Shown: positions 2,680 through 54,706 of the stretch, piece by piece
Position numbering within the stretch: position 1 is the stretch's first letter
Layout of the letters: each line of letters opens with the position of its first letter
NCBI RefSeq assembly: GCF_921293095.1
Contig: NC_060253.1
Span: 98,659,073-98,723,072 of the forward strand
DNA: 64,000 bases
DNA from: Ischnura elegans
Lineage: Eukaryota > Arthropoda > Insecta > Odonata > Coenagrionidae
Reading direction: 5' to 3'
Notes under the pieces: generated by a model
Database searches by the model: none
The model's input: the letters and a program-made list of their open reading frames with translations, nothing else
Told to the model about the DNA's origin: nothing
Program-made: the position numbers and the translations under genes

Positions 2680-3010
2680 GGAAAAGGAACGAGAATTTGC
2701 TTCTGGACATGGTGGGAAAAGACAGGCAACTTCTAGATGAGATTCAGAGGATATTGAAGGTTTGGATGGAGCGATTTTTTTAGCGGGGAGAGAATATTGA
2801 AAATATTAATAGAGGGAAGAAGGCTGAATTAGCGTGAGCAATGACGGTAGAGATTAGGACTTTAAGATAGGATGAAAGGGGGAGGACCTTATTGTGAATT
2901 GATGAAGGAAACTCACAAGTCGGGAGCCTGGCCAGGGTGGTAGTCATAATGCTCCTTGTAAACCTACCGTGAAGGATATTATACTACGATATCATTATAA
3001 TCATAATTAG
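2680..3010 (+). mobile_element. LINE fragment, 3' end, decayed
   Basis: Broken reading frames give matches to the C-terminal tail of the LINE copy at 30002-30590: a stretch like LLDMVGKDRQLLDEIQR (from about 2696), then W-M-E-R, and further on a remnant of the GRGRKRIG-like block. It ends in an A/T-rich tail near 2990-3010. Several stop codons and frameshifts interrupt it, so it is dead. The family match is within this window; placing it in a LINE clade needs a database. Confidence 0.7.
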
Positions 3011-6000
3011 CAACGAATTAAAATTGGTAAACGAGCCGATTAGACATGCATGTTTTGAAAATTTTTGTGAAAATGGAAAACATATCGTTTCATTGACAAT
3101 CAGTTTCAACAACATCAACCTTCTTAAGCGATAAATGGGAGAGAAAACGTATACTTGGAAAGTTAAGACGAGGAGTGGTACACCTCCTTGGCTCTTGTAA
3201 AACGTCCCGTCAAGCGATCAAATTCCATAAATCTGTCAACCGTCAAAAGGTGTTCTCTGTACCCTTTCCCTGCGCAACTCTACGTGCGGAATTCCATTCA
3301 ACCTTCAAGTGCACGCGGGGTCGAAGAATAAAGCAGGTGGATTGTTATGTGCACCCCGCAACGGTTGCGATCCATAGGTCAGATATTACAGCTAATATAT
3401 TTTAAAAGAGGAAGGGTCTTGGACTAAGTTTCATGACGACGGTTTTTTTCGATATGGCGTAAATGTCTCTTTCTCTTCCTGTTCACCCAACGAAGCATTC
3501 GCGTCGAGGACCTTGAGGGAATCAATGAATCGAATGACGTTTATGCGTGTTATACACGAATAATGTGGCGTCATCGCATAAAAACGAAGCGATGATAACG
3601 GTGATTTGTGGAACATTCGCCAAGACACTTGGTCATCCATAGAAAAAAAATGACGACTGAAAAAATACTTATCCTTCAGAAGTTAGCTTCTCACTTAACC
3701 AAACTCCGCCATTCATTGAAATAGTGATTTTCTCAGGGTCTCAAGGTCATCCTCTGATGATCACGAGATGCTATTTATTTATGTTATTCAAAGCTATTTT
3801 AGCGTGCATAAATCTGTAAACTAAATGTTCGACAATTATTTTTGACATAGCTGAAAACTCACTAAGGAACAATCTTGACATTTATGATTTCCCTTGGCGA
3901 AAAATTAGGAATAAGATACAAACTAATTCGCGGTGTCATAGATTGTACCAAGTACATGTTTCCGAGACGCAAGGCATAATGAAATTGGAAATTGTTAAAT
4001 CGACTGAATTCATTGCAATGTGATATATTCATCTCTCTGGATCACGCTAGGACGGGCTAATTTTTTCTTATTTTTTCTCCATGGTAGAATTGTTTTATTA
4101 ATTTTCTCATCAAGTGTGAAAAATACTTTGAAATATAAAAAGATAAGAGTTACAAATTCTAATTGCAAAACTATTCAGATTTTAAATGCCGATGACGCAG
4201 TCGAAGTCGTGGAAGTAAATTATTTTTTAATGTCTCCAAATAAGGATCTCCACTCACTATTTTCATTCCAAGAGCTGTAATATTAAAAAATTACTAATTT
4301 AAATTGATTAAGCGTTTTTAAGTATAGCAACCCATCTGCAGTGAACTTTGAAATATCTTATAGACGTTAAACGGCAGAAGGTGAAATATAAGGCTATAAG
4401 ACGTCTCTCGTCCATTACTTGTGAAGTAGACGCAGTAGGAGCTGAGATTATTTAATGAGTTCTGGAGAGGATATTGGAGTAATGGAATTCAAATGTCCTT
4501 CCGATATATTTCTGAGGCGTTGAAATGTCGAGAAGGTCAGACTAAATGTTTTTTGGTGGCTTTCGCATTACCCTCTACCCTCAAGGCTCGTGTTATTTTC
4601 CCAAAGGCAATATTCCCCTCCTTAACATTTACCTTCAAACGAGCTTTACGAATACCCTACCGTGCTTCATAAATGCTTAGGTCGTGACGTAAGCAACCTC
4701 AGTGTACACCTCTATTTTGCGTGGGGGCAAAAGTAATTTACTTATTTTATCTGCAGAAATTTCCACCATCTATTTTCATCAGAATCTGAACCCACTTTTA
4801 TAAAAACCATTAGTTCAAGTCCAGTATTCTCGTATCACAGTTGGTCCAAATATTATACGGCTAACAAGGTAAGTAAGGCACGATTGAGACAGATCTTTAA
4901 CATTTTAAAGTGACGAACGCCTTCTTTTAAGCTGCCATGTTTGGTGACAAGGTGCTGCGCCTCATGACCGGGTAATAAAAAAATGTACAAATGATTTCTA
5001 ATACCTTCTAATATACAATTAACGCGGCAGCTTGTGCGCTAGGATGTAGATGTAGCTGGAATATATGTGCTAGAGTGTACAAATTGATTGTCTTACTTTA
5101 TTTTGATAGAAGAAATAGAACCCAATACACATCCACGAAACCATGCAAATATAAGCTGTAGAAAGACATTTCAGAATACTTAAGTATTTAGGTGACAAGA
5201 GAGTTCAAATGCATGAAAACACCTTTTATTAAACTGACATTTTATCATAATAAAGGCCGTTATACATTTGCATGAAAAGTTTCAGACTCGAATGCATCGA
5301 AGTTATAAATGACTTCGGGATAGCACTTGAACGCAGATAATATGTGGGAAATATAGTGCTGTCATTTAATACCCCGAGAAATATTCAATCAGAAACGATG
5401 ATTATTCCTTTGGCAAAAGTTAGAATTTTGGCAAAATATTTATAACTGAACTCTGAGATGATACCTATTTATTTACTGAGCGCCCCACCAGTCCAGATAA
5501 GGTCCACCAGTAAGCTTTTCAATTCAGCAAGCTAAAATTTTGGAAGAAACGAAATAGTAATTCAAAACCAAATCTTGAAGATGTAAAGGGACATCCATGA
5601 ATATCCCTAGCACATGCAACTCAAATGGAGTTATAGACTCATACCTATATTCGTTGGTCACAGGGCTAAGTTTTGGCTTAATTAACTATTTATCTACTTA
5701 TAGATTTTATCATATATTATATGAAGAAATTCTGCAAGCATATACTTATGTACTTCTGGCAATAAATAAAATTCCAGAAAGTAAGGCTGTTTGCTAGCTA
5801 CTGTAGGCTGTACTTAAACCTTATACTTCAATAATAAGCGATTTTAATGGAATATCGTTAAAAAGTTGGTAAAAACAATCTTTAAAACGTTCTGATAATA
5901 TATTTCCTTTTCCATAGAAATTCAATTTCACCAATTTATCAAATTCTGGTTCATTTCTAGACTTCGGTCTCAGGGTTCATGCTGCAGAAACAATGTTAAT

Positions 6001-6700
6001 TATGCTGCTCGGTTACAAAATAGGAAAAATTTTCCACATTTTACAGCTGAAAGCTTTAAAATTAATTTATGTCCCAGTAATGAACTTCGCTAACCCCTCA
6101 TTCCATCTTTGTAAGACGCTGAATGGAACTTCTCAAAGGTAATAGACTCTTTAACGGTCTACACTTTCCTTACAATCAAATGGTTTTCAAGGCCTTCAGA
6201 ACGAGACGCCATTGTATACCCTTCGGGGTAAGAACAAACACTAAAAGATTTACCACAATCTGACCTCTCTAGGAAAAGACAGGTTATTTTCTCACCCATA
6301 CCCTATAAATTTTCGGAACGTCTCAAGAAAACATTTGCTCTCTCCACCGTTAATATTATTATAAAGTATAATCTCTGTAATCCAGCTTTGCGGTGATGTT
6401 ACATACCCATCAATTCGGCGTACAGGGCTTGCGGCCTCCCTTCGGCAAATATATATTTTCGTCTCTTTTAAATAAAATATTTTTCAATTCGTATTAAGTC
6501 TTACTATATATATATAGGTGTAAGGCAGTTCATCATATAAGTACAAGAAGTTTTGGTTACGTGACCCATTGAATTAGGAAAAGAAATGTTCTTTGCAGAG
6601 GCACAGTGGTTTCAGGTTTATTCCGCCATTATTTATTCTGCCAGGGTTTATTATGCCTTGTTTTTAATTTGGTTAACTACCTTGGCTCACACCTTAAGCA
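3011..6700. other. AT-rich DNA, no recognised gene
   Basis: I see nothing codable or structurally striking in this 3.7-kb stretch. Open frames are short (up to 86 codons) and show no domain. A short dinucleotide TA run sits near 6505-6520. Confidence 0.5.
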
Positions 6701-6704
6701 GTAG

Positions 6705-6957
6705 GGAGAGTTAGCGTTACTATTCGTATTTATTTTATTAATATTCTAATTTTTAGTGTTTAATTATTCCGATACCACCTAATACAGCATATATTTGCCA
6801 TTTTACATTAGGGTGATTAGCAAATTTAACAATTACGCGGGCACGAACAATCCTTCCTTGGATACGGGCAACATAGCCAGGCGGGACTCGAACCCGCGAC
6901 CTCTTGTTTGGCAAACGAGGATTTTGCCCCGCCGCCAACGAGGCCGGCATATAATTT
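6705..6957 (-). mobile_element. tRNA-derived SINE
   Basis: Read on the minus strand, the element begins at about 6952 with a tRNA-like head. A clear pol III B box, GGGTTCGAGTCCC (6884-6896), follows a degenerate A box and an anticodon-arm-like hairpin. The acceptor arm does not pair properly, so this is a SINE head rather than a working tRNA gene. The tRNA-unrelated body runs down to about 6705. A diverged second member of the same family lies at 34345-34540 on the plus strand, matching in the head and in a block around TTGCTAAT. Confidence 0.7.
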
Positions 6958-7754
6958 CAAAATTATGCTTTAAATTTTTCTTTTTGCATTTTGCTTGTTT
7001 CTACTACGTTTCCAATAATCTAGGGTTTTCTTTAATCCGGCTATTCCACGGCTACATGTGTGTTGGATTACCGGGATCGCACCGTGTTGGAAAGACAAGA
7101 AAAAAAAACAGCGTGAGAGAACACAGCTATGAGTGGAGTACTATTCCGTGAGCCTTTTTCATTCTCTTGCTAACGGCCTTTTTAAAATTCCTTCCTCTTC
7201 TCTTGCCAAAGCATTTCATCCCGACCGGACAAAACGCAAGACACTAAGACCTCTCTCTCCTCCTTTCCTCGCAGTTAAGTTATTGGCCCCCTTCTAAGAG
7301 CGGTTTAAATCCATCGCCTCGAAGGAGCGAACACTCATACGATGAAAGACGCCTTCGAATAAATCACGGAAATTGGAAATAAGGCTGTTAAACGGGTGAA
7401 GCGTCTTCTCGCGTCCAGAGAAGGAGGAAGTGAAGTGGGGGGGAGGGGGGATGGAAGGGACCCAGGTCACGTGACTCCCGCTTTCGCATCCTACATCATG
7501 CCACCGCCCCAACACTCCCCCTCCCCTCCCCACACTCGCAGCGAATAAACCCCGTCGTATTTTTCGCATTTACCAATTATCCCACTCGTTTGTCTGGATT
7601 TATTTTCCCACGGAGCTCTCGGCGCCCCGAGAGCAACAAAAACGTGAAATATAATTCAAAGGGGATCGTTCTCTGTGGCCTAAGTGCGGGTGTGTCCCTA
7701 TTAATGTGTCCACACGCACAAATTCAATTCATACTACGTATTTTTTTAGAACAT
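6958..7754. other. No gene; G-rich and C-rich patches
   Basis: The segment holds a G-run region at about 7436-7452 and a C-rich patch at 7500-7535. No gene or element is recognised. The 91-codon minus-strand frame across it reflects base composition. Confidence 0.5.
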
Positions 7755-8014
7755 ATCGATGGCTAAGTTCTACCAACGCGTACCTCAAATTCGGCCGGCT
7801 TGAGACAGGTATCTTAAACAAAGTGTAATAACATTTAAAAAAATAAAATACAAGCAAAAAACAACTCTTTGTTTTCAAATGATCGCTTCTTTTTCAGTTT
7901 TGTGAACTTTTGGTTTTTCATTTCAGTGCACAAGTAAAAAAAATTGATCGTTGTTTTGCTCTCTTGAAAAGTTGCTATTTTTGAGATACGTGTTGTTAGA
8001 ACTTAGCCATCGAT
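7755..8014. repeat. Short TIR element (MITE-like), 260 bp
   Basis: The segment begins ATCGATGGCTAAGTTCTA and ends with its reverse complement, TAGAACTTAGCCATCGAT. The terminal arms are about 36 bp (7755-7790 and 7978-8014) with a few mismatches. It contains no open frame. This is the shape of a non-autonomous DNA transposon. A second, partial copy follows directly and shares the junction. I see no certain target-site duplication. Confidence 0.65.
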
Positions 8015-15739: not shown

Positions 15740-16458
15740 TAGGTCGTGCCATCAGCCTTGCCAACGGTTAGGTGGCGACTATACGAACTACTGATATTAT
15801 TATTATTATTAAAATTGTTACAAGTAGGCAATTTTCCTGGTGGTAACATGTACATATGATGAAAGAAAACAATAGAAAACATTGAAAAAACAATAGAAAT
15901 CATTTGAAAACATTGTAAAAAGCCCTTGGTCCCTACTTCTTCAACTACTTCGTAAATTTTTCGGGAAGGACTCAAATAGTTCTGCTGGTAGGTCGTTCCA
16001 GTCCCTTATGGTCCTATTCAAGAAGGAGAACTGCTTCGCATTTGTCCTTTGTGATCGGCACTATATCTTGAACTGGTGATCATTTTTTCCAACAAAGCTG
16101 GGTTTTGATATGTCCTTCTCCAATTCTTTCCATCCTTTTTCCCCACTCATTATTCTAACCATGCCACATAGCCTGCTTCTTTTCCTCCTCTCTTGTAAGC
16201 TCTCCCACCTTTGAATGAGCATTTCTGAAACACTTTCCGTTTTTTTATGCTTTCCCAACACATACCTAGCAGCTTTTCTCTGCACCTTCTCCAATTTCTT
16301 GACCTCTCCTTTAAAATGAGGGTCCCAGACAAGAGATGCGTACTCTAATGTAAGTCGTACTAGGGTTGTATAGGCCATTTCTTTGGTGGCCCTAGTGCTT
16401 CCTCTGAGGTTTCTCATCACCCAGTGCAATACTTTAAAAGATTTTTTGATTTTGTGCT
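15740..16458 (-). mobile_element. CR1-like LINE fragment, C-terminal end of the RT ORF
   Basis: On the minus strand the reading from about 16455 down to 15960 resembles the region after the reverse-transcriptase fingers and palm of non-LTR elements. It reads LRGSTRATKEMAYTTLVR, then LEYASLVWDP, then KLEKVQRKAARYVLG and WESLQERRKRSRL. After a break it continues with RTIRDWNDLPAEL, a typical LINE C-terminal motif. The copy is 5'-truncated and interrupted by a stop at 16061. An ATT microsatellite (15795-15811) lies near the expected 3' end. The family differs from the LINE at 2.7, 8.4, 8.9 and 30 kb. Confidence 0.8.
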
Positions 16459-19400
16459 CGACACAATATATACTCGATACAACTCGATATCTCGGTAATC
16501 ACCACGCATTCAGACGATAGTTGAGGGTTACCTCGGTTACGATCGCGTTTGTGTGGACGGGGTATCAGTGGCATGGTATAGTCTTCGGTGTGGGTACCTG
16601 GAGCATAAATGTTGCTGATTTCGTTTTTTAAAGTAATGAGTCGGTTCGATTCTTAAAAAAAACGAATTCGAAAACTATCTTTGGCACAATTATTTTTGTA
16701 TGAATAAAAGAGAGTGATGCCGTAAGCCTAAGACTAAACATGTGATTTTAGGCAGTTTTATTATTGCCAAAACAAAAATCATAATTATCTTTTGAAAAAT
16801 AGCCATTGGAAATGAAACACATGATGAAGAACTGCAACCAACAACCGATGCATGGAACCGGCTTAAATGTAAAACCAAGCCATTCCTAGGTTTCCCTCTG
16901 TGACGTCACTATTGCACCTCTGAAAATAACCTTTTTCCAAAATAATCTCCCACAACAGGTGGGAGGGAGAAATCTGTCAAATCCCACCCCTGATGAATGA
17001 TGTTGAACGCCCAAGAATCGTTCAGACCTGCAGTGTGTTTGCTTCATTTTTAATATCCCGAGCCGGAGACTCTCCAATATCCAATCTCATTGCCCTCTCT
17101 CTCTCTCATGGTTTGCCCCGCCCCTTCCCAAGATACCCCGCGATACCCCCGCCGTACACGCGTGACCGCCTGAGTCGAACACATCCACCCCCGGAGAAAC
17201 ACAAGACCGAGCCAAGAGCCGTACCTACAGACGGACACACGCACGCCAAGATAAGAGCTCCTAAAACGGATAAATTGATTTTTAAGCGACCGGCCCGCCC
17301 CCCCCCCCACTCTCCCCTTGGGGGTTCTCCCACCCCCTCCCCCCTCTACTAGCCTCATACCCCTTCCCTCGGCCCGGCTCTCACTTAATTGAATGGTTTG
17401 TTTTAGGCTTTTATCGGCATTAATAATCTCGGGCTCGAGTGAATGGGAAATATAAAGGTTCCCTGGGTCTAAGAGGATCTGAGCGTCGTGGTTCTCATCG
17501 TGTCTGTCCGTTGGTAAGGGGTGGGAATTGGTTGGAGGTGCAATACCTGTTGCGCACGTTAAATTTTCGGTAAAAGATTTCACTAATCCGTTCACTGTTT
17601 ATTCATCCAAGTTTGCCTACACTAAATAATTAGTTGGAGTACATTAGGAACTGCATTGAAATAAATATTTGCAATGTCCCACGACTTAAAATATAATGTG
17701 ACTAAGGTTTTAATGCTGCTAAATTATCTTCTAGATGGGGATGACCTTCACCTTGAAGATAATGCAGTTACAATTGCTGATTTCAATATGGAAAACTTCC
17801 ACTCCATTACACTTGAATTGTCATATTGTATGCATTAAAAACCATTCTTTCCTAAATTCATCCTTTCCTAAATTCATCAAGTATTTCAATACTGTGGCCA
17901 TAACTAGACAAGCTTTGGTGATATGAATATACCTGTAAAATATATTTTAATAAGCTGCCATTCAATGTAAACACAAGCAAACACATACAAATCCAGCGCC
18001 TGAACTATCTTAATGTGCACGTAATTACTGAAAATTATTGTTGTATGATGATACGAATACATTTATAAATTTACGCCATTTATGAGTTTTAGTATTTTAT
18101 TTGCCATCAATTGAACTTAATTATTATTAGGTTTTTGGGAGTAAGGAAGAAACACGTAAGAAAGGGAATGCATAAGAGGCCGTGACGTATGATTTCTGTT
18201 GCATATGATAAAATTTCGGTTTCAGAGTTCATAATAGCAAATAACTTTGTGCAATCGGCCATTACTCGTTACCTCTAGAAAACATGTTGTCCAGAGAGAT
18301 TGTTCAAGAATTCGCTATATCATCGGGAAGCTGACAATTGAACAAAAAAACTGTTTTGGAAATGCTACAAAATTCATTCTTGAAAATACCATGAAAATCG
18401 CACGCATATGGCAAGAATATGTTCCTTTCACGACATTATTTTAAATTTTTATGTATACTTTATTCTTATCTTTCATAGCTTAATGCAATGTGTGCTTACA
18501 CCTTAAGAGTATGTATAATTTATCATATTTCTAATACCTGGTGGGATATGAAATTAAAACATATCTTTAAAGATATGTGTGTGACTGTGCGTAAAAGTTG
18601 AGACTATTTTTCAGTGCGAATCACGTGAGTCGGCTCATCAACGTTTTAGGCTAGATATTGTCTTATACATGATTTAACTCCTGTGGTTACGAGCCATTTC
18701 AGATTTCCGACCAAGCCTTCGGAGCGTACCGTTTTCGTAAGTCGGGCAGCACCTGCATTCTCTGACGACAACCACCAATATACAGACTAAAAATATATAA
18801 CTGAACACGCTTACGGATGCAAAGTTTTCAGATGGCTACCGCCCCATCATCAAGTATTTCAATTAAACTTTTAGCCAAAAATTACTTATCTTTATCTTGA
18901 TAATTGATAAACATTAATTTCACTTATGTGTAATTTAATTAAAATCGTGAAAAAATTCTCTCTGTTTCACATGAGTCGATAGATGCCAGGTAGAGACGTG
19001 CAGTGTTTGTTGCATGCGAGAAATTTTGAGGGGTATAATTTCGTTCATTGAGTTCGAACTTTAAAAAAAATCATCAATGCTACTAATTATAAGTGTTTAG
19101 TATACTAAGTTTGTACTATAGTTAAAACGTAAAATTCACATTAGATGCAAATCGACTGAAAATTAAATGTGAAATTGTCTTTGCTATTCAGCGTTATAAT
19201 TTAAACACAAGGGCTTTGTATATTATGGATGCCTTGCTATTTCAATTATCGTAGCATGACCGTGCCGAGATTTATTAATGTAAAAGTAATTATTTAAGTA
19301 ATTTGTAAAAGAAAATTGTGATGACAGTAGAAAAACCTCAAGTTAAATATTGAAGTATAAACTCTTACACACCAGTTTAATAGAAGAAATCGTCGAAGGA

Positions 19401-30001: not shown

Positions 30002-30590
30002 ATTAAGGTAGGTTTTCATGGAGTATTCAAGAAGTGAGCTGGGAGCCTCCCTTTCCTTCCAGCACTACCTTCTTTAATTCACTGTAAGGCCTACTCTCTT
30101 TCAATCTGTCTAAAAATCCTATTCTTTTCCTTCCCCTCCCTCGTTTCCCTAACATTCTACCCTCTAACCCCATTTTCAACATCCCCTCACCGCTAAGCAC
30201 TAACTCCATCCATACCTTCTGTCTCCTCCGTATCTCATCTAAAAGCTGCCTCTCCTCGCCAACCATATCCAGCACTTCGTCGTTCCTTTTCCTCTCCGTC
30301 CATTTCACCCTCTCCATTTTTCTCCATACCCACATCTCGAATGCCTCCAATCTTCGCTCGTCTTCTTTCCTCAGTGTCCACGTTTCCGCACCGTAGAGAG
30401 CTGCTCTCCAAATCAAACTCTTCACTAACCTTTTCTTTAAACTCTTACACAACGATCCTCTCAGAAGCTCCTTCCTGTTCATGAATGCCTCCTTCGCTAA
30501 TGCGATTCTCTTCCTTATGTCCTTAATACGTAGGTATGCTGGTGCAAAATAAAATTGCTCCATAATGCTCTGTTCTGGGTCCATTGCTAT
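30002..30590 (-). mobile_element. LINE fragment, best-preserved 3' end of the local family
   Basis: An uninterrupted 185-codon minus-strand frame (30584 to 30027) encodes the C-terminal tail of a LINE reverse-transcriptase ORF. It includes IRKRIALAKEAFMNRKELL, LVKSLIWRAALYGAETWTLR, the block EAFEMWVWRKMERVKWTERK, then DEVLDMVGEERQLLDEIRRR and GKRGRGRKRIGFLDRL. The catalytic RT core is missing, so it is 5'-truncated and cannot move by itself. The tail, in reverse, is CCTACCTTAATCGG followed by an ATT microsatellite. Copies at 2680, 8360 and 8870 belong to the same family and are far more decayed. Confidence 0.9.
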
Positions 30591-30629
30591 TTTCTTTTTA
30601 TATTGTGGATTTACAAAAGAAATTTCAAT

Positions 30630-30785
30630 ATTGAAAAAACTTTATGCTGATGATTTGCTGGTATATCAACATTTAACATGGGGAAATAGCTGACGCTATT
30701 AGAAAGATGATTCGGATGTGTACAAACTGAGTGATTGGGTTGAATCCAACAGCTCCCTCATGAATTCTGCCAAAGAAAGACCTTG
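30630..30785 (+). mobile_element. Reverse-transcriptase fragment with Y-A-D-D
   Basis: The plus strand reads KLYADDLLVYQHLT from 30637, with the Y-A-D-D box at 30643-30654 as in the catalytic palm of non-LTR reverse transcriptases. It continues after two stops as KDDSDVYKLSDWVESNSSLM. It is a short, dead fragment in the opposite orientation to the neighbouring LINE tail, so it derives from a separate insertion or a rearranged copy. Confidence 0.7.
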
Positions 30786-45902: not shown

Positions 45903-46292
45903 CGTGATAAGACCCAAAAATAGCCGGACGGAAATCGCTGCGACCGTCGCGTCGCTCTCAAGTTTTGGGCTTCTCCCTCTCAATGGGTATTATTTCATCA
46001 TATCTGAGTCATTTTGCAAAAGGACGTGGCTTTAGACGGTTGTAGCAATCCCCTTTGACAATTTATATTAGAAGAGTTTTATGCCCTCTTCGATTTTTGA
46101 AGTGGCTGATATATTCGAGAACATCGTGCAGTGTTGAAATTTTGCTCTCTGCTCGGTAAAATTGAGTCAGACACAGTTATTATGATGTCAACAGCCTTTA
46201 AAAAACACACTTTAACAATAACTCATGTGCGCGAGTGATATTCGCAATTCAAACGTGGCAACATGTCGATAGAAGGCATTCAACAAGGCCCA
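45903..46292 (+). mobile_element. mariner relic, left part
   Basis: The left end (TACGTGATAAGACCCAAAAA from 45901) matches the reverse complement of the right end near 54681-54708, about 21 of 28 positions. TA at both edges fits the mariner target. From about 46120 broken codons read LKFCSLLGKI, then THVRE, a stop in place of the expected W, and YSQFKRGNMSIEG, which is the N-terminal helix-turn-helix region of a mariner transposase. The coding frame is cut by the CACTG element at 46292. Confidence 0.8.
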
Positions 46293-46305
46293 CACTGAGA
46301 AAACA
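46293..46305 (+). repeat. Left terminal inverted repeat
   Basis: CACTGAGAAAACA. It pairs with 54149-54161 with one mismatch. It is followed directly by the first subterminal motif. Confidence 0.85.
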
Positions 46306-46307
46306 GG

Positions 46308-46466
46308 TTTGGGTGGTACACCCTAAACGTCTTTGGGCGTGGAGGTTTGGATGCGCCATCAAGAATAATAAGACGTCAGAACTAATTATTTGGATGTGAG
46401 AACCAAAGGCAAGGAGCGTCACACCAAACACGGATAGTCAAGGTAGTTTGGGTGGGAGAACCAAAG
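46308..46466. promoter_or_regulatory. Left subterminal motif cluster
   Basis: Three clear copies of a 20-bp quasi-palindrome occur: TTTGGGTGGTACACCCTAAA (46308-46327), TTTGGATGTGAGAACCAAAG (46389-46408) and TTTGGGTGGGAGAACCAAAG (46447-46466). Weaker half-sites lie between them. In CACTA elements such arrays bind an element-encoded protein and are needed for transposition. The motif's partner here is not shown by the sequence. Confidence 0.75.
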
Positions 46467-46667
46467 TTGTAGTTGGTGCACTCTGCTGGGATAGTTGCGA
46501 AATCTAAATCTATAGTTGCGCTCACTGGTGGCGCTCTCAGGAAGCACTATAGCATCCGCCATTCTCTGTTCAGCCGTTGGAGCCATCAACACGTTCGGAC
46601 TTGTGCGCGAAAAGGGTGCTCTTCTGATTCTGGTGCCACGTCTTCACTGTTCCTGCTTCCCGTGAAA

Positions 46668-49600
46668 ATGGACGAGGGGACGAAGAAATTTCTATTGAAG
46701 GCTGGGCTTGGAGCCTATATCCAGGTGTTCGCTGGTAAGTTGCTTTGAAATTGCGATTTTGTATCAATTCTTACGGCCATTTTGTGTTAATTCTCACCGC
46801 CATTTTGAATTATTTCTCCTACCCACGCCATCAGCCTTTGATTATATGAGTTCTTTTTCAGATTCCCTATGTAATCTCTGAGCTTATTACAAACAAAATT
46901 CAAATTCGGATTATATTTTGTCGTCAGAGCTGCTGTGCTTTTTAACATTTAACTTTCTTTCTGTTATTGAGGATAAGATATCTCACGTTAGGAGTCTATT
47001 GCCATTCGCAGCCAAGTTATTTAATTATGGGTTCTAGTGTTGCAGAATTAAACATGCTGCTGCCTTAGAATAGAAACTGCAATAACGTAAGCACTCTCCC
47101 GCAGTTTTCCTTAACGGGAGTCTTAATGTCGAAACTACATAAATCGTGTGCATATCTGCGCAATATCCTGCAAGCCACCTCTAAGGTGCATGGCTGAAGA
47201 ATTTATTCGTCATGTTTCCATGCTATCGCTCAATACTCGTTTCTTTTTCCGTCTTGTGCAGATAGTGATATAAGTTCGGATCAGCTTTCCACTCTGCCAT
47301 CTGTGGCTCCCTCGGTGCTGGCAGAGCTCATTCCTAAGGCAGGCCACCGTATTAAGTACATTGAAGCATTGAGCAGCGACGTTGTTGATGTATGATCTCC
47401 TTTAAGGACCAAGTTTGGTAAGTGTATGAAAGATCAGTGGAATACAGTTTTCAGATTATTTTATTTATGTTGTAGGGAAACAGTGAGACCTCCAGCAAGT
47501 CAGCATCATCTGAATCGACTCCGTATCCACTGAATACTTCCGTGGTTGTTGATCTGGTGGGGATCAATCAGTATGCCGAAACAACGATTGTATCAGCTCC
47601 GGAATTCATAACCAGCTCTATTGACTTTGATCGCGCAATTGAGCAAACACATAACCAGGCAAAAAGCACGGTAAGTGTGATATGATTCGATGCCATATCA
47701 TTTAGGCTTATTTCAACATTTTAGTACAAAAGTAATGATAACTCTGTGTTAAATAGACCAGGCTTCACTCGTCATGGATTTCCATGTAATTTGGTATGAA
47801 CAATCAGACAGTGATGTAGTCAAATTCAGAATAGCGATGCAGTCATATTTTAGCCGTCTTTAATTATTTTCGATACTTGTGTGATTGAAATTGGGTTTAG
47901 TCCCTAGCATGCCTCAATTTGCATCCGAGTTGGATTGAAGAATAGAAGAATAAAAGTTGGATTTTTTGTTGTTGATTAAAAGTTGGATGATATACCAGAA
48001 TTTTAGTGGCGTATTTAGAAGCACCAATTATGAACATGCCCTCTCATTCCGTTAATGTTATTTTATATGCTGGTACACAAGGTTAAAGATTTTCATTTAA
48101 AACTAGGGGGATTAAATAAAGTTAAATACCTTTCGAATAAAGTTCTTTCCATCTTAGGTCACATGTAAAGCTATTTTTAATTTCAAAAATCATATTGTGG
48201 GTGGGTAGAATGTGGGTAGAATGGTAAAAATAAAAAAGAAACATAGTCAATTTTTATTAATAGAAAAACTTGTGCTGTATATAACGTTATGTACATTAGC
48301 CAAAATTTTATTTTTGTACTTGTTAAGCAAGATGTCATATCATTTGTGAGTTACATTGAAGCTTATCTTGAAATTTTTGGGTATCAACTGAATTTGAGCT
48401 AAGTTCAAATAGGTAGTGTTTTTAATATCAAGACCAATGTACTTGGCAGCCACTCTTCTTGTAGATAAGGGTAAATACATATTATTACAATCGAAACTTA
48501 GTATGGGATCCCATTGCCTTTTTAAATGTAAGCAGTCAATCGAAATTAGTGCAAATTATTTTTATCTAAAGATATTATTTTTTGTTGGGGAAGTTATCCA
48601 CATAGATATAGAATATGTGAAGACAATGCTAGGATTCTTCCATTATCCTTGGTTTTAGGAAATTATTTCTGTTTTTTTTTTTATGCACTACAAGTCAACT
48701 TATGAATGAAAACATTATCCAACTCAGTTGCACATTGGAGGAGTCAAAGGACCATGCCCAAATTTTAATCACTCTAATTTATTCAATTTCCCAATTGCGA
48801 ATTAGCTAATAGTGAGGTGGAATAGTAATATTGAAACATAGGCAATTATATGTATGATAATGTTCAGCGTAGGTAGTCAATTCTTTTTCTTTTATATCCA
48901 TAACCTTTTTCTGAATCAATTTACTATTATCATTTTTGAGTACTAGTCCACCACATACATTGCAACAGGCCATAATATTGTAAAAGTCTTTGTCACCATT
49001 CTTTCAACAATTATGGAAACAGCATTTTTTTATGTGCCCATAGTTTTATACTACTGTATTATGAAGAGGCACAACAAGCAATGCTAGCCAGTCACTTAGG
49101 TATCTTGTTGTTATTAAATATAACTGATTATGTGCATAACATGGGTACTATTTCTGAGTCATCTTGTTGGTGGCTTTCGGTTTCGAACAAATTGGAGGAA
49201 GTAACATGTTTTCCACCCTGTACCTCAAGGTGACCTCAAAGTATCTTTGATTTGATTAAGTATTTTTATTCTGTTTCAGTATATAAGAAATCTTGCTGAA
49301 AAGTCCATTGATGGACTAATTGTTCTGGCCTCATACGAAAATAAAAAGCAGCTGGAGCAGGCTCTGAAATATAAATTGGCCAAAGCCATTGTTTTGCACG
49401 AGCTAGGGCTAGACACTAACAAGGAGTAAGTTAAATGTGAATGCTATTTTATTTAATCTTTATTTTTTATTCAAAAAATGATGTTTTAACACATTTCTTT
49501 GTTTTGTAGCATAACCCCTCATCGCTTTCGGTTCTTGGCCGACTGTGTGGGGCAAGAATTCAATGAAGATCCCGTAAGTTCACTCATTTCTCATTTACTT

Positions 49601-51052
49601 CAACTTCAAATTACCATCATGAATTTCATATATCATGTACCATGGCATTGCTTGTATTTTCCAGGAGCTGTGGTATAACCCATCTCATACAAATGATGGT
49701 AGAACATCTCTACCATCTGGGAAACTGTACGACCAGTACACAAATATTTGCAAGGAGTTGCGAAAGTTTGGGTTAAGGGAGTCAAGACGAGGGGTCAAGA
49801 GGCCTGGGGAAGATATAGCCTGTGATGGTAGCGAGGATTTGGCCAGACTCCTTCCATGCGCCCTTAGCAATGAAGGTATTTATGATAACAATTTTTGTAC
49901 CACATTAAGAGATTGAAATTTCTTGGTAGTTAATTCATTCTCAGTAATATGTGCTTTGTCACGTTTTAGATGTTGAAGAAAGATTACAGTTCCTGCAGAC
50001 TGAATTGAACGATTGGGAAACAATCAACAGATACTGGCAGGAAACAGTGAGGCACCGGCAGGCCAAATTAAGGTCTGACGCTGCGTATGAGGCCACGTAT
50101 GAATATGTCAACACATATCCGGTGCTGAAACAGCCAGAAGGGTACAAATTGGTTGGTACCATCCATGATCTTTACCTCATAAAAAATAACTTGAAAATGC
50201 TTTCAATTTTCATTATCTTTCAAAAATATGCTAGCTCCTGCATCTGCCTCAATGTCATAATATCAATGCCATAATTTTTATTTTCCAGCTCCAGAGTGAT
50301 TTTAGACAGTTGTTCCCTCAGGCATATGGTAGGATTGCTAGCCACTGGGAGCCATTTGCTGAGAAGGTGAAGGAGCAGCTTAGCATTGAAAATATTTCAA
50401 TCCCAGGTAGGCTAACAACAAGAGCTTCCTACACTAGTTTCCTTATACAATGTTTTGCCTGATTATTTGTGATTAAAATGAACTATGTATTGCAGCTCGG
50501 TGCTCCGATGCAGAACTTCTGCATTTATTTGCGCGGTTGGTGACAACAGTTCCGTTGAAAGTCCCTAAGGGAAAAGCGTGGAAGCCTTCACGGAAGGATA
50601 TTTTGGATGGCTTTCTTTGCTACGCTAAGGTAATTTTTGGACCTATATTGAATGTCAAAAATTAAGTTACCAGGAAGAAATTAAGTCATGTTTTTCTTTT
50701 TCAGACTGACGACTTGATAAAACATTGTGATGGGCTGGAGGAGCGATATAGAGCACGAGGGTTAACGGTGCAGCCCTTTCCCATGATAATTGGGGAATCT
50801 TTGGCAAATATACACACACATTATTTTGTGATTGACAAAACACCCATAACGCTGCCCACCACAAGAGATTTGTTTGCTGCTACCTTCTACGCGTATCACT
50901 CTCTTTATTGTAGATACCCACTCCAAAGTGCCCGTCTGTGGGTAATAGTTGAGAAGGCGTTGTTTGGGATGGAAGAGGTAAAGGATCCTCAATCCCAAGC
51001 TATCTCAAAAATACCGGAGGTGAAACGCCTAATTTCTGTGTTGAGAGTGTAA
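46668..51052 (+). CDS. SAM-like domain protein of the CACTA element (gene 1), ten exons
   Basis: I read ten exons: 46668-46734, 47262-47389, 47476-47670, 49280-49425, 49510-49573, 49665-49875, 49970-50151, 50289-50406, 50496-50629 and 50705-51052. All introns are GT-AG and all phases join to give 530 residues and a stop. Donors are mostly GTAAGT-like; the one after 50151 (GTTGGT) is weak but the only one keeping frame. The start has a good context (GAAAATGG). Residues 1-65 look like a SAM domain (FLLKAGLGAYIQVFA, then L-P-S-V-A-P-S and LAELIPKAGHRIKYIEAL), a fold used in protein or RNA contacts. Residues 131-270 form a second compact region, residues 272-331 are helical and charged, and the rest is unrecognised. 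It may be the accessory partner of the transposase, comparable in position to TnpA of En/Spm, but I see no sequence proof. Intron 3 is long (1,609 bp). Confidence 0.8.
47671..49279 (+). other. Long intron 3 of gene 1
   Basis: The 1.6-kb AT-rich intron begins GTAAGT and ends with a pyrimidine tract and TTTCAG. It holds only short frames (80 codons at 48416-48658) without a domain. I see no nested element in it. Confidence 0.6.
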
Positions 51053-51084
51053 GGTTTTTCTTGTGTGAACTTTTTTAGCTTTAA

Positions 51085-51145
51085 ACTTTTGTGTGCATTT
51101 TTTGACTTTTGTGTGTTTGTTTTGCTTGTGTGGGTTGGAAGCACA
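51085..51145 (+). promoter_or_regulatory. Candidate 3' splice site ahead of the transposase start
   Basis: Between the gene 1 stop (51052) and the transposase ATG (51146) lies a T-rich tract ending in AG at 51140-51141, four bases before the ATG. I see no poly(A) signal in this gap. One reading is that gene 2 is made by splicing an upstream leader exon to this site, skipping gene 1, as alternative splicing does in plant En/Spm. The tract is interrupted by G residues, so the site may be weak. Confidence 0.4.
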
Positions 51146-53611
51146 ATGCCTACCTGTTTCACTTGTGGTTTGACTCTGCCTTCCATAGTTGCTCTCCATA
51201 TTCATTTCAAATCCGTCCATAATTTACAGCCTAATGAAGATTATGGGTTTACTTGTGCAGAGGGTGATGGCTGTATTGCTACTTATTCTGGTTGGAAAGC
51301 ATTCAGGGTTCATTTGTTAAAACAGCACAGTTGCTCACAAATATCTGACAATATACCAGAACCAACTTCTACGACTGAAACATTTCGAGTTGAATCATTT
51401 AATAAGGACAATGAACCTCAGCAAAACCTGTACCCTCCCCCGGAGGCCCCTCTTAACATTCCGCACATTTTTGAAGACATGGTTTTAGAGTTTGCAGCCA
51501 AGTTGTATGCTAACCATAAGTTACCTCGTAGTCATGTTGTTGACATAATGAAAACTACCACTGATTTATTAGAGTCTATGTTAGATTTGTTAAAACCAGA
51601 AATTAAAAGTGTTATCACCTCTTGTGAGAATGAAGATGCATGTTTCAAGGTGGAGAAACAACTAGACTTTATAGTGCAACCCTTTTCAAACCTTTCCACT
51701 GAGCATAGGTATCTGAAGGTTTTGAAAGCTCGAGGCCATTTCATTTCTGGCCATACGTATTCATTGGGATCCAGAGTTAAAAGGAAACGTAAACATGGTA
51801 TGCTGAAAAGGGTTATGTCAAATGTAACAGCAAAATTTATTCCAATGCGGGTTGTCCTTAAAAAAATATTTAGTTTACCAGGAGTATTTTCCTCTGTAAC
51901 ATCATATGTCACCAAACTGTCTACTGCTGTAGGTTGGCATGAGAACTTTGTGCAAGGAAACTTATGGAAGTCAAAGGTTAAAAACTTTCAGGATAAAATT
52001 GTCTTTCCACTTTTTCTTTATTTTGATGATTTTGAGGTGAACAACCCATTAGGTTCTCATGCATGTGTAAATAAACTGGGTGGGGTGTATTACAGTATCC
52101 CATGTTTTCCTCCTGAAGTTCAGTCCCAGCTTGAAAATATTTTTTTGGCAGCTCTGTTTTCCTCTAGTGACAGAGTAGAATTTACCAATCACTCAACATT
52201 TTCCGAAATAGTGAAAGAGCTAAATTTCCTCCAATCTGAAGGTGTCGAGATAATCACTGACTCTGGTCCAAAAATAATCTTCTTTGCTCTTGGCCTCATT
52301 CTTGGTGATAACTTGGGTTTAAATCAAATCTTGGGCTTTCAGGAAGGCTTTAATGCTCACTACTGTTGCAGATTTTGCAAGACAAGTAAATTTGCTAGGC
52401 AGTGGGAAACCTGTGAGAGGAATTTGAGAACTCAGTCAAGTCATGACAGGGATGTTGTAAAACTTGATCAAAAAAATACAGGTGTTAAAGAGCAGTCAGT
52501 GTGGGATAGGGTTAATTATTTTGAAACATGCTCCAACTTTGCTGTAGATTATCTTCATGATGGTCCTGAAGGTGCATTTAAAAAATTTATGGGGCTGATT
52601 GTAAATTATTTTGCATGTAACTTTGCATCCACTAAAAACAGCTTCCTTTCCATATTGAATGATAGATTGGAAGGTTTTGATTGTCATGCCAATGCAATAA
52701 GCAATAGGCCACCTCCCATTTCTCATGATGAGGCTAAAGATAAACAGCTTAGGATGTCAGCAAGTGAAATGCAATCTTTTATCCTCATGTTTGCCATGCT
52801 GGTGGGGGATACTGTTCCCATGGATAATGACGTGTGGAAATTTTATCTCTGCATGCGCAAAGTTCTTGAGATTGTTCTGGCTCCTCGTCTCACTACTGGT
52901 CATGTACCTCTGTTGAAAGGGTATGTTAGTGAAATGTATGAAATGTTTTTGGAAGTTTTTCATGCTGAAACAGTGCCTCATAAACTTCATATTTGGGTTC
53001 ACTACCCAAGAGTTTTAGAAGAAAGTGGGCCAGTCACACACCTGTCCACATTTAGATTTGAATCCAAACATAGGCATAAGAAAACAGAAGCAGTAGCAAC
53101 AACTAGCCGTATAGATATTGCTGAGACACTCGTGCATAAGGAGTTGCACACTCTTGCATATCGATTCCTATTGGGTAAAGGCTTTACCCCTAATAATAAG
53201 TTTGGAAAGTGTGTAAAGGTTCAACACTTATCAAACTTACCAGGGTTTTGCTCATTTCAGTCTAGTTGCCCTAAATCATTTTTGGAAAGTAGTTGCAAAT
53301 TAACTTGGGTGACAGTAAATGGTCACACTTACAGGAAAGGATCCTGTGTTGCCATGCGAATAGAAGGTGCAAGTGAAATTTATCCTACCTTTGGTGTTGT
53401 TGATTCTTTGTTACGGGATGCAAATAACTGTGTAATACTAGTTTGTAAAATGTTTTATACTGTTGCGTTTGAGCAAGACCTTCATGCTTATGAAGTCAAA
53501 TGCACTAGTAATTATGAATGTATTGCCATACAGCAATTGGTCTCTCCAACCCTTGTCATATATTCAACCTTAAAAGAAATTTCCTATGTGTCTCTGAGAC
53601 ATACTCTGTAA
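51146..53611 (+). CDS. CACTA/CMC-like transposase (gene 2), 821 residues
   Basis: The frame is intact, intronless and on the same strand as gene 1, 93 bp after its stop. An upstream in-frame ATG at 51065 would add a hydrophobic 27-residue leader; I prefer 51146 because the first zinc-finger cysteine follows at residue 4. Two C2H2 fingers come first (C4, C7, H20, H25 and C37, C43, H56, H61) and probably bind DNA. A basic patch (VKRKRKHGMLKRV) lies near residues 211-223. The core has L-Y-F-D-D-F-E-V-N-N-P-L-G-S-H (D294, D295), GLILGDNLGL (D388), a Cys cluster C-C-x2-C (407-411), DYLHDGPEG (D468, H471) and FRFESKHRHKK (E639). The N-P-L-G and D-x-x-H-D motifs recall the TNP2-type transposases of CACTA elements. 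Candidate catalytic acids are D294 or D295, D388 or D468, and E639, pending an alignment. Expected role: nuclear cut-and-paste transposition at the CACTG ends. Confidence 0.85.
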   Translation: MPTCFTCGLTLPSIVALHIHFKSVHNLQPNEDYGFTCAEGDGCIATYSGWKAFRVHLLKQHSCSQISDNIPEPTSTTETFRVESFNKDNEPQQNLYPPPEAPLNIPHIFEDMVLEFAAKLYANHKLPRSHVVDIMKTTTDLLESMLDLLKPEIKSVITSCENEDACFKVEKQLDFIVQPFSNLSTEHRYLKVLKARGHFISGHTYSLGSRVKRKRKHGMLKRVMSNVTAKFIPMRVVLKKIFSLPGVFSSVTSYVTKLSTAVGWHENFVQGNLWKSKVKNFQDKIVFPLFLYFDDFEVNNPLGSHACVNKLGGVYYSIPCFPPEVQSQLENIFLAALFSSSDRVEFTNHSTFSEIVKELNFLQSEGVEIITDSGPKIIFFALGLILGDNLGLNQILGFQEGFNAHYCCRFCKTSKFARQWETCERNLRTQSSHDRDVVKLDQKNTGVKEQSVWDRVNYFETCSNFAVDYLHDGPEGAFKKFMGLIVNYFACNFASTKNSFLSILNDRLEGFDCHANAISNRPPPISHDEAKDKQLRMSASEMQSFILMFAMLVGDTVPMDNDVWKFYLCMRKVLEIVLAPRLTTGHVPLLKGYVSEMYEMFLEVFHAETVPHKLHIWVHYPRVLEESGPVTHLSTFRFESKHRHKKTEAVATTSRIDIAETLVHKELHTLAYRFLLGKGFTPNNKFGKCVKVQHLSNLPGFCSFQSSCPKSFLESSCKLTWVTVNGHTYRKGSCVAMRIEGASEIYPTFGVVDSLLRDANNCVILVCKMFYTVAFEQDLHAYEVKCTSNYECIAIQQLVSPTLVIYSTLKEISYVSLRHTL

Positions 53612-53760
53612 GGAAAGTTCCTAATTTTTATACATGTATTGTATTTCCTAATTATATTTTGTATTATATTATGATTGTTTTTTATATTTTCATGCTATTG
53701 TATAAAATTTGATAATTGTGTTAATTTTCAATGTTTCGTGTTGAATCATATGATAATGAC

Positions 53761-53766
53761 AATAAA
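53761..53766 (+). terminator. Poly(A) signal of gene 2
   Basis: AATAAA lies 150 bp after the transposase stop and before the right subterminal cluster. It probably serves all transcripts of the element. Confidence 0.6.
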
Positions 53767-53963
53767 TGAATATCATGACCTCGGAACTCAGTTTTCTCAT
53801 TTTTCCAATTGCACTGTCCTAATTCCCCATTTCAAAAGGGGTTGAAAAAGAACAATATTATGGGTTAGTAGGGTTGTAAAAGGGGTGGGGGCACATTCAT
53901 TTGGGCTATTCATCTAAAGTTTTCATTTGGTATCCAATGGTTGTTCGGATGAGCCATCCAACA

Positions 53964-54126
53964 CTTTGGTTCTCACACCCAAAGTACTCGTCCATCTTCT
54001 TTGGATGTAGCAACCAAAGGAGTAGTTGGAACATCCAACTCCTCATCACCCATTCCCTTTGGGTGACACAACCAAATGTATGGACAAGTCCTTTCCTTCG
54101 CCTCAGCTTTGGGTGTGACACCCAAA
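53964..54126. promoter_or_regulatory. Right subterminal motif cluster
   Basis: Four copies or near-copies of the left-end motif occur: CTTTGGTTCTCACACCCAAA (53964-53983), CTTTGGATGTAGCAACCAAA (53999-54018), CTTTGGGTGACACAACCAAA (54057-54076) and TTTGGGTGTGACACCCAAA (54108-54126, a near-perfect palindrome). Half-sites extend to about 53900. Confidence 0.75.
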
Positions 54127-54148
54127 CCTACGATTCTCATATCCAAAG

Positions 54149-54161
54149 TGTTTTTTCAGTG
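54149..54161 (-). repeat. Right terminal inverted repeat
   Basis: TGTTTTTTCAGTG, the inverse of 46293-46305 with one mismatch, followed by CA. Confidence 0.85.
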
Positions 54162-54163
54162 CA

Positions 54164-54706
54164 GTACTGATAAAAATGTGGAAAAAACTCTTACCCTAGT
54201 GTACGAGAATCAGAGGTGTTATATTGACGGACTCGCTGAACAATCTGGTAATTTGTAGAGTTCATCACAGCGAATTTCGGTAATCAATTGAGACGAATCG
54301 CGGCGAAATTCATCCCCCCCGCTTGTTGCCTCCTGATCAAAAGTGGCACGTGTTGCTGTTTGCTGCGACTTGTGTTTTTGGTAAAATAATTGCAAGACAA
54401 TGCTTTCTCACCCAACCTACTCACCAGATGTTGCCCTTTGTGCTCCTTTTGTTCAACCGGATGAAAATGGTGATGAAAGGGAAATGTTTCGGTCAGATTA
54501 CGGATTTGAAAAGAAAATCGAAGGCGGCGCTGCAAGGGATCGGAAACGACGAGTACCAAAACTGTTTCGGGTATTGGATAAAACGTTTTAACCAATTCAT
54601 CAGTGTAAATAGAGAGTACTTTGAAAGTGACAAACGTTTGTAAGACAAAAAATTAAATTTTTAATTTTTTCAAAATCGTATCCGGTTATTTTTTGGTCCC
54701 TCCTCG
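54164..54706 (+). mobile_element. mariner relic, right part
   Basis: Directly after the element, codons read STDKNVEKTLTLVYENQR and then IDGLAEQSGN, the continuation of the mariner N-terminal domain. A deletion of a few hundred bases removes most of the catalytic core. Later codons read LSHPTYSPDVAL in one frame, and KGKCFGQITDLKRKSKAAL with YWIKRFNQFISVNREYFESD in another, which is the mariner C-terminus. The stop at 54643 and the terminal repeat (54681-54708, TCCGGTTATTTTTTGGTCCC) follow. Without the insertion the copy would be about 0.93 kb, shorter than the usual 1.3 kb. Confidence 0.85.

What the first reader, a model, noticed from the sequence alone, without database searches (positions are those of the whole stretch)
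46293..54161. Apparently intact two-gene CACTA/CMC-like transposon in an animal genome
Ends CACTG...CAGTG, a 13-bp inverted repeat with one mismatch, a possible CA target duplication, subterminal motif clusters at both ends and two open genes all coincide on the same 7,869 bp. Animal CACTA elements with both genes intact appear to be little described. Intact frames of 530 and 821 residues next to a decayed mariner suggest recent arrival.
Basis: partly seen in the sequence, partly recalled or inferred. Interest (0 to 1): 0.9.

Follow-up and report, generated by a model that had tools for sequence, protein, structure and literature searches.

The report
Intact two-gene damselfly CACTA-type transposon
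This is a complete, apparently recently mobile "cut-and-paste" jumping gene in a damselfly genome, and its main enzyme is predicted to fold like RAG1, the enzyme that cuts antibody genes in vertebrates.

Summary
The finding is real. Window 46293-54161 is a complete two-gene cut-and-paste transposon in a 1.72 Gb genome, most likely Ischnura elegans (damselfly). Two more full-length copies have exactly the same ends (0.09% and 1.6% substitutions), and 37 other places hold shorter or broken relatives (lower bound). Of 35 copies with both ends readable, 34 have a perfect 2-bp target duplication; 32 of those are pyrimidine-purine steps. The window's joined flanks match 38 uninterrupted copies of the host repeat. 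Gene 1 has ten GT-AG exons (530 aa). Gene 2 (821 aa) carries the D-D-E, CxxC, HxxxH signature of the CACTA-Mirage-Chapaev-Transib clade; its confident model matches RAG1, ProtoRAG and Transib best, with a BAH-like C-terminus. Palindromes TTTGG-N9-CCAAA lie only at the ends. Of the three full-length copies only the window's has both genes open; a sister family has six open gene-2 frames (two of them one duplicated locus). "Recent arrival" is not supported: the family looks old and recently active. Novelty is modest, as animal CACTA elements are known; the newer points are the two-gene architecture, the RAG1-like fold with a BAH-like tail, and the target preference.

The parts
46293..54161 (+). 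Whole element, 7,869 bp
   Evidence: Two other genome copies align over exactly 1-7869
46291..46292 (.). Left copy of the 2-bp target duplication (CA)
   Evidence: 34 of 35 copies have perfect 2-bp duplications
54162..54163 (.). Right copy of the 2-bp target duplication (CA)
   Evidence: three fetched empty sites carry a single CA
46293..46305 (+). Left terminal inverted repeat CACTGAGAAAACA
54149..54161 (-). Right terminal inverted repeat, read inward CACTGAAAAAACA
46389..46407 (.). Subterminal palindrome TTTGG-N9-CCAAA
46447..46465 (.). Subterminal palindrome TTTGG-N9-CCAAA
53965..53983 (.). Subterminal palindrome TTTGG-N9-CCAAA
54000..54018 (.). Subterminal palindrome TTTGG-N9-CCAAA
54058..54076 (.). 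Subterminal palindrome TTTGG-N9-CCAAA
54108..54126 (.). Subterminal palindrome TTTGG-N9-CCAAA
46668..51052 (+). Gene 1, ten exons: 46668-46734, 47262-47389, 47476-47670, 49280-49425, 49510-49573, 49665-49875, 49970-50151, 50289-50406, 50496-50629, 50705-51052; 530 aa; second protein of unknown fold
   Evidence: all introns GT-AG, one open frame; NCBI model LOC124164466 of I. elegans, 340 aa, is 100% identical over 62% of it; Rhagoletis homologue 33% identical over its full length
51146..53611 (+). Gene 2, one exon, 821 aa transposase
   Evidence: 288 homologues at E <= 1e-3; model pLDDT 92.2; RAG1/Transib fold
51146..51328 (+). Gene 2 residues 1-61: two C2H2-type zinc fingers (C4,C7,H20,H25; C37,C43,H56,H61; H61 kept in 41 of 70)
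   Evidence: column counts; profile matches zinc-finger proteins of the PDB over positions 2-59
51458..53179 (+). Gene 2 residues 105-678: RAG1/Transib-like core
52025..52027 (+). D294, presumed catalytic
   Evidence: D in 69 of 70 aligned proteins
52307..52309 (+). D388, presumed catalytic
   Evidence: 70 of 70
52367..52378 (+). C408-x2-C411 motif
   Evidence: 70 and 69 of 70
52988..53002 (+). H615-x3-H619 motif
   Evidence: 70 and 70 of 70
53060..53062 (+). E639, presumed catalytic
   Evidence: 70 of 70
53189..53590 (+). Gene 2 residues 682-815: BAH-like domain

Best explanation
It is an autonomous-type cut-and-paste DNA transposon of the EnSpm/CACTA lineage (CMCT clade) that jumped into a copy of a host repeat in a damselfly genome. 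Shown: the exact ends, the 2-bp duplication, the empty sites, two complete open genes in this copy, close relatives with the same ends, and short derivatives that keep the outer parts. Inferred: the gene 2 protein binds the CACTG ends, cuts with its D-D-E site and joins the element to target DNA at a flexible pyrimidine-purine step with a 2-bp stagger. The palindromes TTTGG-N9-CCAAA are docking sites for a dimeric protein, probably the gene 1 protein (as maize TnpA works beside TnpD) or the N-terminal fingers of gene 2. The BAH-like tail may tether the complex to chromatin.
For: Own genome: a second full-length copy at C2 with 7 substitutions in 7,865 bases, and a third at C4 with 129 in 7,851. 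40 of 42 match rows for the first 1,008 bases begin at element base 1-3 (40 of 215 candidates scored). 34 of 35 copies have perfect 2-bp duplications; 32 of 34 are YR against 23.4% of dinucleotides in 20 fetched loci, p = 2e-18. Empty sites: 38 of 40 places matched by the window's joined flanks span the junction, the other two being the flanks themselves, and three fetched ones hold a single CA; the C2 copy, L012, L019 and L047 also have related empty sites in DNA already fetched. Transposase: 288 relatives; D294, D388, C408xxC411, H615xxxH619, E639 kept in 69-70 of 70 aligned proteins; model pLDDT 92.2; all 47 PDB matches at E <= 0.001 are RAG1, BbRAGL or HzTransib. [quoted passage not shown] The gene pair recurs: Rhagoletis LOC118734989 and LOC118734990 bear consecutive numbers and a contig of the same length, and the damselfly sister family has a gene 1 relative upstream of gene 2. 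Palindromes: 31 of 31 short copies keep at least one at each end and none inside; all 185 TTTGG/CCAAA pairs found in the ends of 35 copies have a spacer of exactly 9.
Confidence: 0.93

Rival explanations
1. It is a fossil: a complete-looking but already silent copy, mobilised in the recent past and now immobile. (This differs from the best explanation only in present activity.)
For: Of three full-length copies only this one has both genes open. No expression data were available; the only hint is an NCBI gene model for part of gene 1.
Against: 7 substitutions in 7,865 bases to the C2 copy, both genes open, and third-position excess against the C4 copy (gene 1: 2/6/15, gene 2: 8/9/16 substitutions at codon positions 1/2/3).
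Confidence: 0.4
2. It belongs to Transib/ProtoRAG rather than to CACTA/EnSpm.
For: The predicted fold is closest to RAG1, BbRAGL and HzTransib.
Against: The duplication is 2 bp in 34 of 35 copies, whereas Transib and RAG make 5 bp (recalled); 2-bp duplications are reported for animal CACTA elements (PMC1636069). The transposase Pfam families seen among relatives are Plavaka, Transposase_21 and DUF4218, each in 1-2 of 55 (that DUF4218 goes with CACTA is recalled). I know of no solved EnSpm structure and none was among the matches, so the fold ranking alone cannot separate the two.
Confidence: 0.05
3. Gene 2 is a domesticated host gene and the ends are coincidental.
For: Relatives occur in many insects.
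Against: Identical boundaries in three copies, empty sites, 2-bp duplications, derivatives that keep the ends.
Confidence: 0.01

Closest known systems
Animal TRC elements: SmTRC1 of Schistosoma, and those of Aedes and Tribolium (PMC1636069; abstract, passages and section 6 seen)
   Same: CACTA-related animal elements with 2-bp duplications (7 of 14 SmTRC1 copies, and the Aedes and Tribolium elements)
   Different: Their ends begin CCC; this one begins CACTG. SmTRC1 carries a Transposase_21 domain, which the window protein does not match, and its proteins are described as products of alternative splicing rather than of two neighbouring genes
Plant CACTA/EnSpm (En/Spm: TnpA + TnpD)
   Same: CAC..GTG ends, repeats near the ends, two proteins, DDE transposase (plant features partly from PMC1636069, partly recalled)
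   Different: Duplication of 2 rather than 3 bp (plant figure recalled); gene 1 homology to TnpA not tested; palindromic 19-bp subterminal sites; BAH-like tail
RAG1 / ProtoRAG / Transib
   Different: 2-bp, not 5-bp (recalled), duplication; about 11% identity; partner gene without recognisable relation to RAG2 (no Pfam match)
Plavaka (fungal, CMCT clade)
   Same: Pfam Plavaka match in 2 of 55 family members, best just under the cut-off; same motif set; 2-3 bp duplications
   Different: Plavaka ends are TGT..ACA or CATCA..TGATG (PMC12730594, passages)

Membership tests
EnSpm/CACTA (CMCT clade) | Ends CAC..GTG / CA..TG | tested here: met
   33 of 35 copies begin CACTG (one CCCTG, one TACTG), 34 of 35 end CAGTG (one CGGTG)
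EnSpm/CACTA (CMCT clade) | Target duplication of 2 to 5 bp | tested here: met
   2 bp in 34 of 35 copies; single CA in three fetched empty sites
EnSpm/CACTA (CMCT clade) | D-D-E with C(2)C and H(3-4)H between second D and E | tested here: met
   D294, D388, C408xxC411, H615xxxH619, E639; 69-70 of 70 aligned proteins
EnSpm/CACTA | Transposase_21 (PF02992) domain | tested here: not met
   Window protein: no match at E <= 0.01; 2 of 55 members match, best 0.0037 and under the cut-off. A Pfam profile misses distant members, so this lowers 'typical CACTA', not the clade assignment
EnSpm/CACTA | Clusters of short repeats next to the ends | tested here: met
EnSpm/CACTA | Second protein that binds the subterminal repeats | not testable with these tools
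   A second gene is present and has relatives; binding cannot be tested
EnSpm/CACTA | Placement in a tree with reference EnSpm, Mirage and Chapaev proteins | not tested
   No reference set (Repbase) was held
Animal TRC elements | CCC ends | tested here: not met
   CACTG in 33 of 35 copies
Transib / ProtoRAG | 5-bp target duplication (recalled) | tested here: not met
   2 bp in 34 of 35 copies
Transib / ProtoRAG | RAG1-like core fold | tested here: met
   predicted model only
Plavaka | Ends TGT..ACA or CATCA..TGATG | tested here: not met

The most novel reading that the evidence does not exclude
An animal CACTA lineage, still mobile in a damselfly, whose transposase joins a RAG1-like cutting core to its own BAH-type chromatin reader (a counterpart in one protein to the PHD finger that RAG2 lends RAG1). 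It works with a second protein docked on palindromic subterminal sites, and integrates at pyrimidine-purine steps.
Probability: 0.35. Interest if true: 0.7.

Novelty: new member of a known kind. Interest (0 to 1): 0.5.

Why it matters
How animal CACTA elements move is little studied, as far as my paper searches show. This genome holds one copy with both genes open and, in a sister family, several open transposase genes, with exact ends, candidate docking sites and a target preference, so an assay becomes possible. The predicted RAG1-like core adds a protein-level comparison to the CACTA-Transib-RAG kinship, which the paper I saw (PMC12730594, passages) argues from shared motifs and trees.

Tried and rejected
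Searches of viral contigs and genome contigs with the transposase profile found no relative. PDB by sequence: no match for the window protein; of 75 sequences matched by the 55-sequence profile, 60 were shown, nearly all zinc-finger proteins over the two N-terminal fingers. Gene 1: Pfam found nothing convincing (DUF5751, E 0.007, under its cut-off), and its Rhagoletis relative folded poorly with four sequences (pLDDT 44), so no fold search was made with it. An N-terminal SAM-like look was by eye only. The mariner label of the flanking repeat was not confirmed. Horizontal transfer was considered: the tree of 56 proteins mixes insect orders (window in a seven-protein clade with an ant and a fly; sister with an ant and a thrips), but without host rates it proves nothing. 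Sister-family gene 2 copies L029 and C16 differ by 14 nonsynonymous and 5 synonymous codons (dN 0.0073, dS 0.0097): no sign of strong constraint, a result against my reading of selection on that family.

Transib membership was rejected on duplication length; domestication on the other copies. L030 is identical to L029 over 9,483 bp including flanks, so it is a duplication or assembly copy, not an independent insertion. A search of the genome with the right end did not complete, nor one with the flanking-repeat protein.
Full report
What was claimed, and what is there. All of it is in the sequence. Gene 1 reads through ten exons, every intron GT-AG, to 530 residues; gene 2 is a single frame of 821 residues.

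Host. A 340-residue NCBI protein of Ischnura elegans (LOC124164466) is 100% identical over 62% of gene 1. It lies on a contig of 118,119,564 bases, the length of the contig that holds the window (C8). The genome held has 1,722,721,009 bases. In the alignment that NCBI model agrees with gene 1 from exon 6 onward and differs only in its start, which lies in the preceding intron. It supports the later splice junctions independently of my model.

Other copies. The first 1,008 bases match 42 rows in the genome; 40 begin at element base 1-3, and the other two continue copies already counted (215 candidates, 40 scored, so counts are lower bounds). I fetched the 39 places outside the window. Two are full-length and end at exactly 1 and 7869: C2 (99.8%) and C4 (98.0%). 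By alignment C2 differs from the window by 7 substitutions in 7,865 bases and 8 small gaps, C4 by 129 in 7,851 and 10 gaps. In the C2 copy gene 1 is open with two amino-acid differences, but gene 2 is frameshifted near codon 36; in the C4 copy both genes are frameshifted. 33 places are derivatives, mostly 1.4-1.5 kb long, that keep the outer ~0.7 and ~0.4 kb, 77-80% identical to the window at the left end. L012 (686 bp) is an internally deleted copy; L011, L013 and L014 are broken.

Ends and targets. Of the 40 places, window included, 35 have both ends readable; L011, L013, L014, L022 and L045 were dropped because an end was missing, broken up or cut by the fetch. Of the 35, 34 have a perfect 2-bp duplication; L055 does not. 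The 34 are TA 11, TG 10, CA 9, CG 2, TT 1, AA 1: 32 of 34 are pyrimidine-purine, against 23.4% of dinucleotides in 20 fetched loci (p = 2e-18). A weaker preference for A at -5 and -4 (21 of 34 each) and T at +6 (20 of 34) surrounds the duplication.

Empty sites. The window's flanks joined without the element match 40 scored places; two are the flanks themselves, and the other 38 run across the junction at 72-80% identity. Three were fetched and hold one CA where the window has two; the window's left flank lacks up to 11 bases that these copies have just before the junction. In DNA already fetched, related empty sites were also seen for the C2 copy (four places), L012, L019 and L047. Three further hits of that call were not counted: L024 and L046 match their own right end, and L023 has only a 43-bp match.

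Subterminal sites. All six TTTGG-N7-11-CCAAA palindromes of the 64-kb window lie in the element's ends, and all six have a spacer of 9. In 31 short derivatives, all 31 keep at least one at each end and none has one in between; in the end regions of 35 copies all 185 TTTGG/CCAAA pairs found with spacers of 3-19 have a spacer of exactly 9. The copies are related, so these are not independent events, but sites and spacing have been kept while the interior was lost. A palindrome of fixed spacing suggests a dimeric binder (inference).

Gene 1. Few relatives turned up: Rhagoletis (33% over the full length), two Temnothorax ants and a weak Musca hit (in both searches only the 7,996 candidates sharing most words were scored). 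Multi-exon genes are probably missed in metagenome predictions (inference). In Rhagoletis the gene 1 and gene 2 relatives bear consecutive LOC numbers. No fold could be assigned.

A sister family. The same genome has six gene-2 matches at 35% identity without a stop, in frames of 819 residues counted from stop to stop, and one at 40% on C9. Two of the six, L029 and L030 on C19, are one duplicated locus. L029 gives an element of about 8.28 kb with ends CACGG...CCGTG and a TT duplication; the C11 and C8 copies show CT and GG duplications; the C4 copy lacks the left end and the C16 copy the right end. A gene 1 relative lies upstream in L029 and L031. None of these three duplications is YR, so the YR preference, if general, is so far a property of the window family only.

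How it works. Shown: ends, 2-bp duplication, empty sites, derivatives with the same ends and duplications. Inferred: gene 2 cuts and joins; gene 1 or the fingers hold the palindromes; short derivatives were moved in trans; the BAH-like tail guides the complex to chromatin. Age: the 0.09% divergence to the C2 copy implies a recent common source; no rate was applied. 'Recent arrival' in the genome does not follow, because older relatives are plentiful.

Known or new. DeMarco 2006 (PMC1636069; abstract, passages, section 6) described animal CACTA-related elements with CCC ends and 2-bp duplications. Daphnia has ten listed CACTA types (PMC2884549, passages), and a Hydra element has CCC ends and 2-bp duplications (PMC4298943, passages). 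My ten paper searches listed no paper whose title or abstract start describes a two-gene insect CACTA element with a BAH-like domain. Several listed only part of what they found (one search listed 10 of 344, 20 of 49, 12 of 21, 15 of 19, 10 of 15, 12 of 15), and Repbase reports and most subscription papers were not searchable. I therefore file it as a new member of a known kind.

Noticed in passing
L029 291-8572 (G000:C19:119032308-119040589) and G000:C11, C4, C8, C16 copies: A sister CACTA-like family with ends CACGG..CCGTG, 2-bp duplications (TT, CT, GG in three copies) and six gene-2 matches without a stop (one pair is a duplicated locus); possibly the more active family.
   Followed up: partly
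L029 and L030 (G000:C19, about 2 Mb apart): 9,483 bp identical without a single difference, flanks included: a very recent duplication or an assembly artefact.
   Followed up: no
G000:C9:38882422-38884884: A third transposase lineage, 40% identical to gene 2, without a stop (frame of 832 residues).
   Followed up: no
window 46143-46292 with 54164-54313: The host repeat that the element entered is multi-copy (at least 38 other places); its parts resemble a decayed mariner by eye, not confirmed by Pfam or PDB searches.
   Followed up: partly
window 6749-6945: A SINE-like repeat (by eye), also present in L016, L021 and L026; the C2 copy of the transposon sits in one of its members.
   Followed up: partly
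L013 and L014 (G000:C4, near 123.21 and 123.25 Mb): Two broken copies of the element about 35 kb apart; in L014 one internal piece is out of order.
   Followed up: no
window 30027-30641 (-) and 16061-16498 (-): Open stretches that look by eye like fragments of non-LTR retrotransposon proteins.
   Followed up: no
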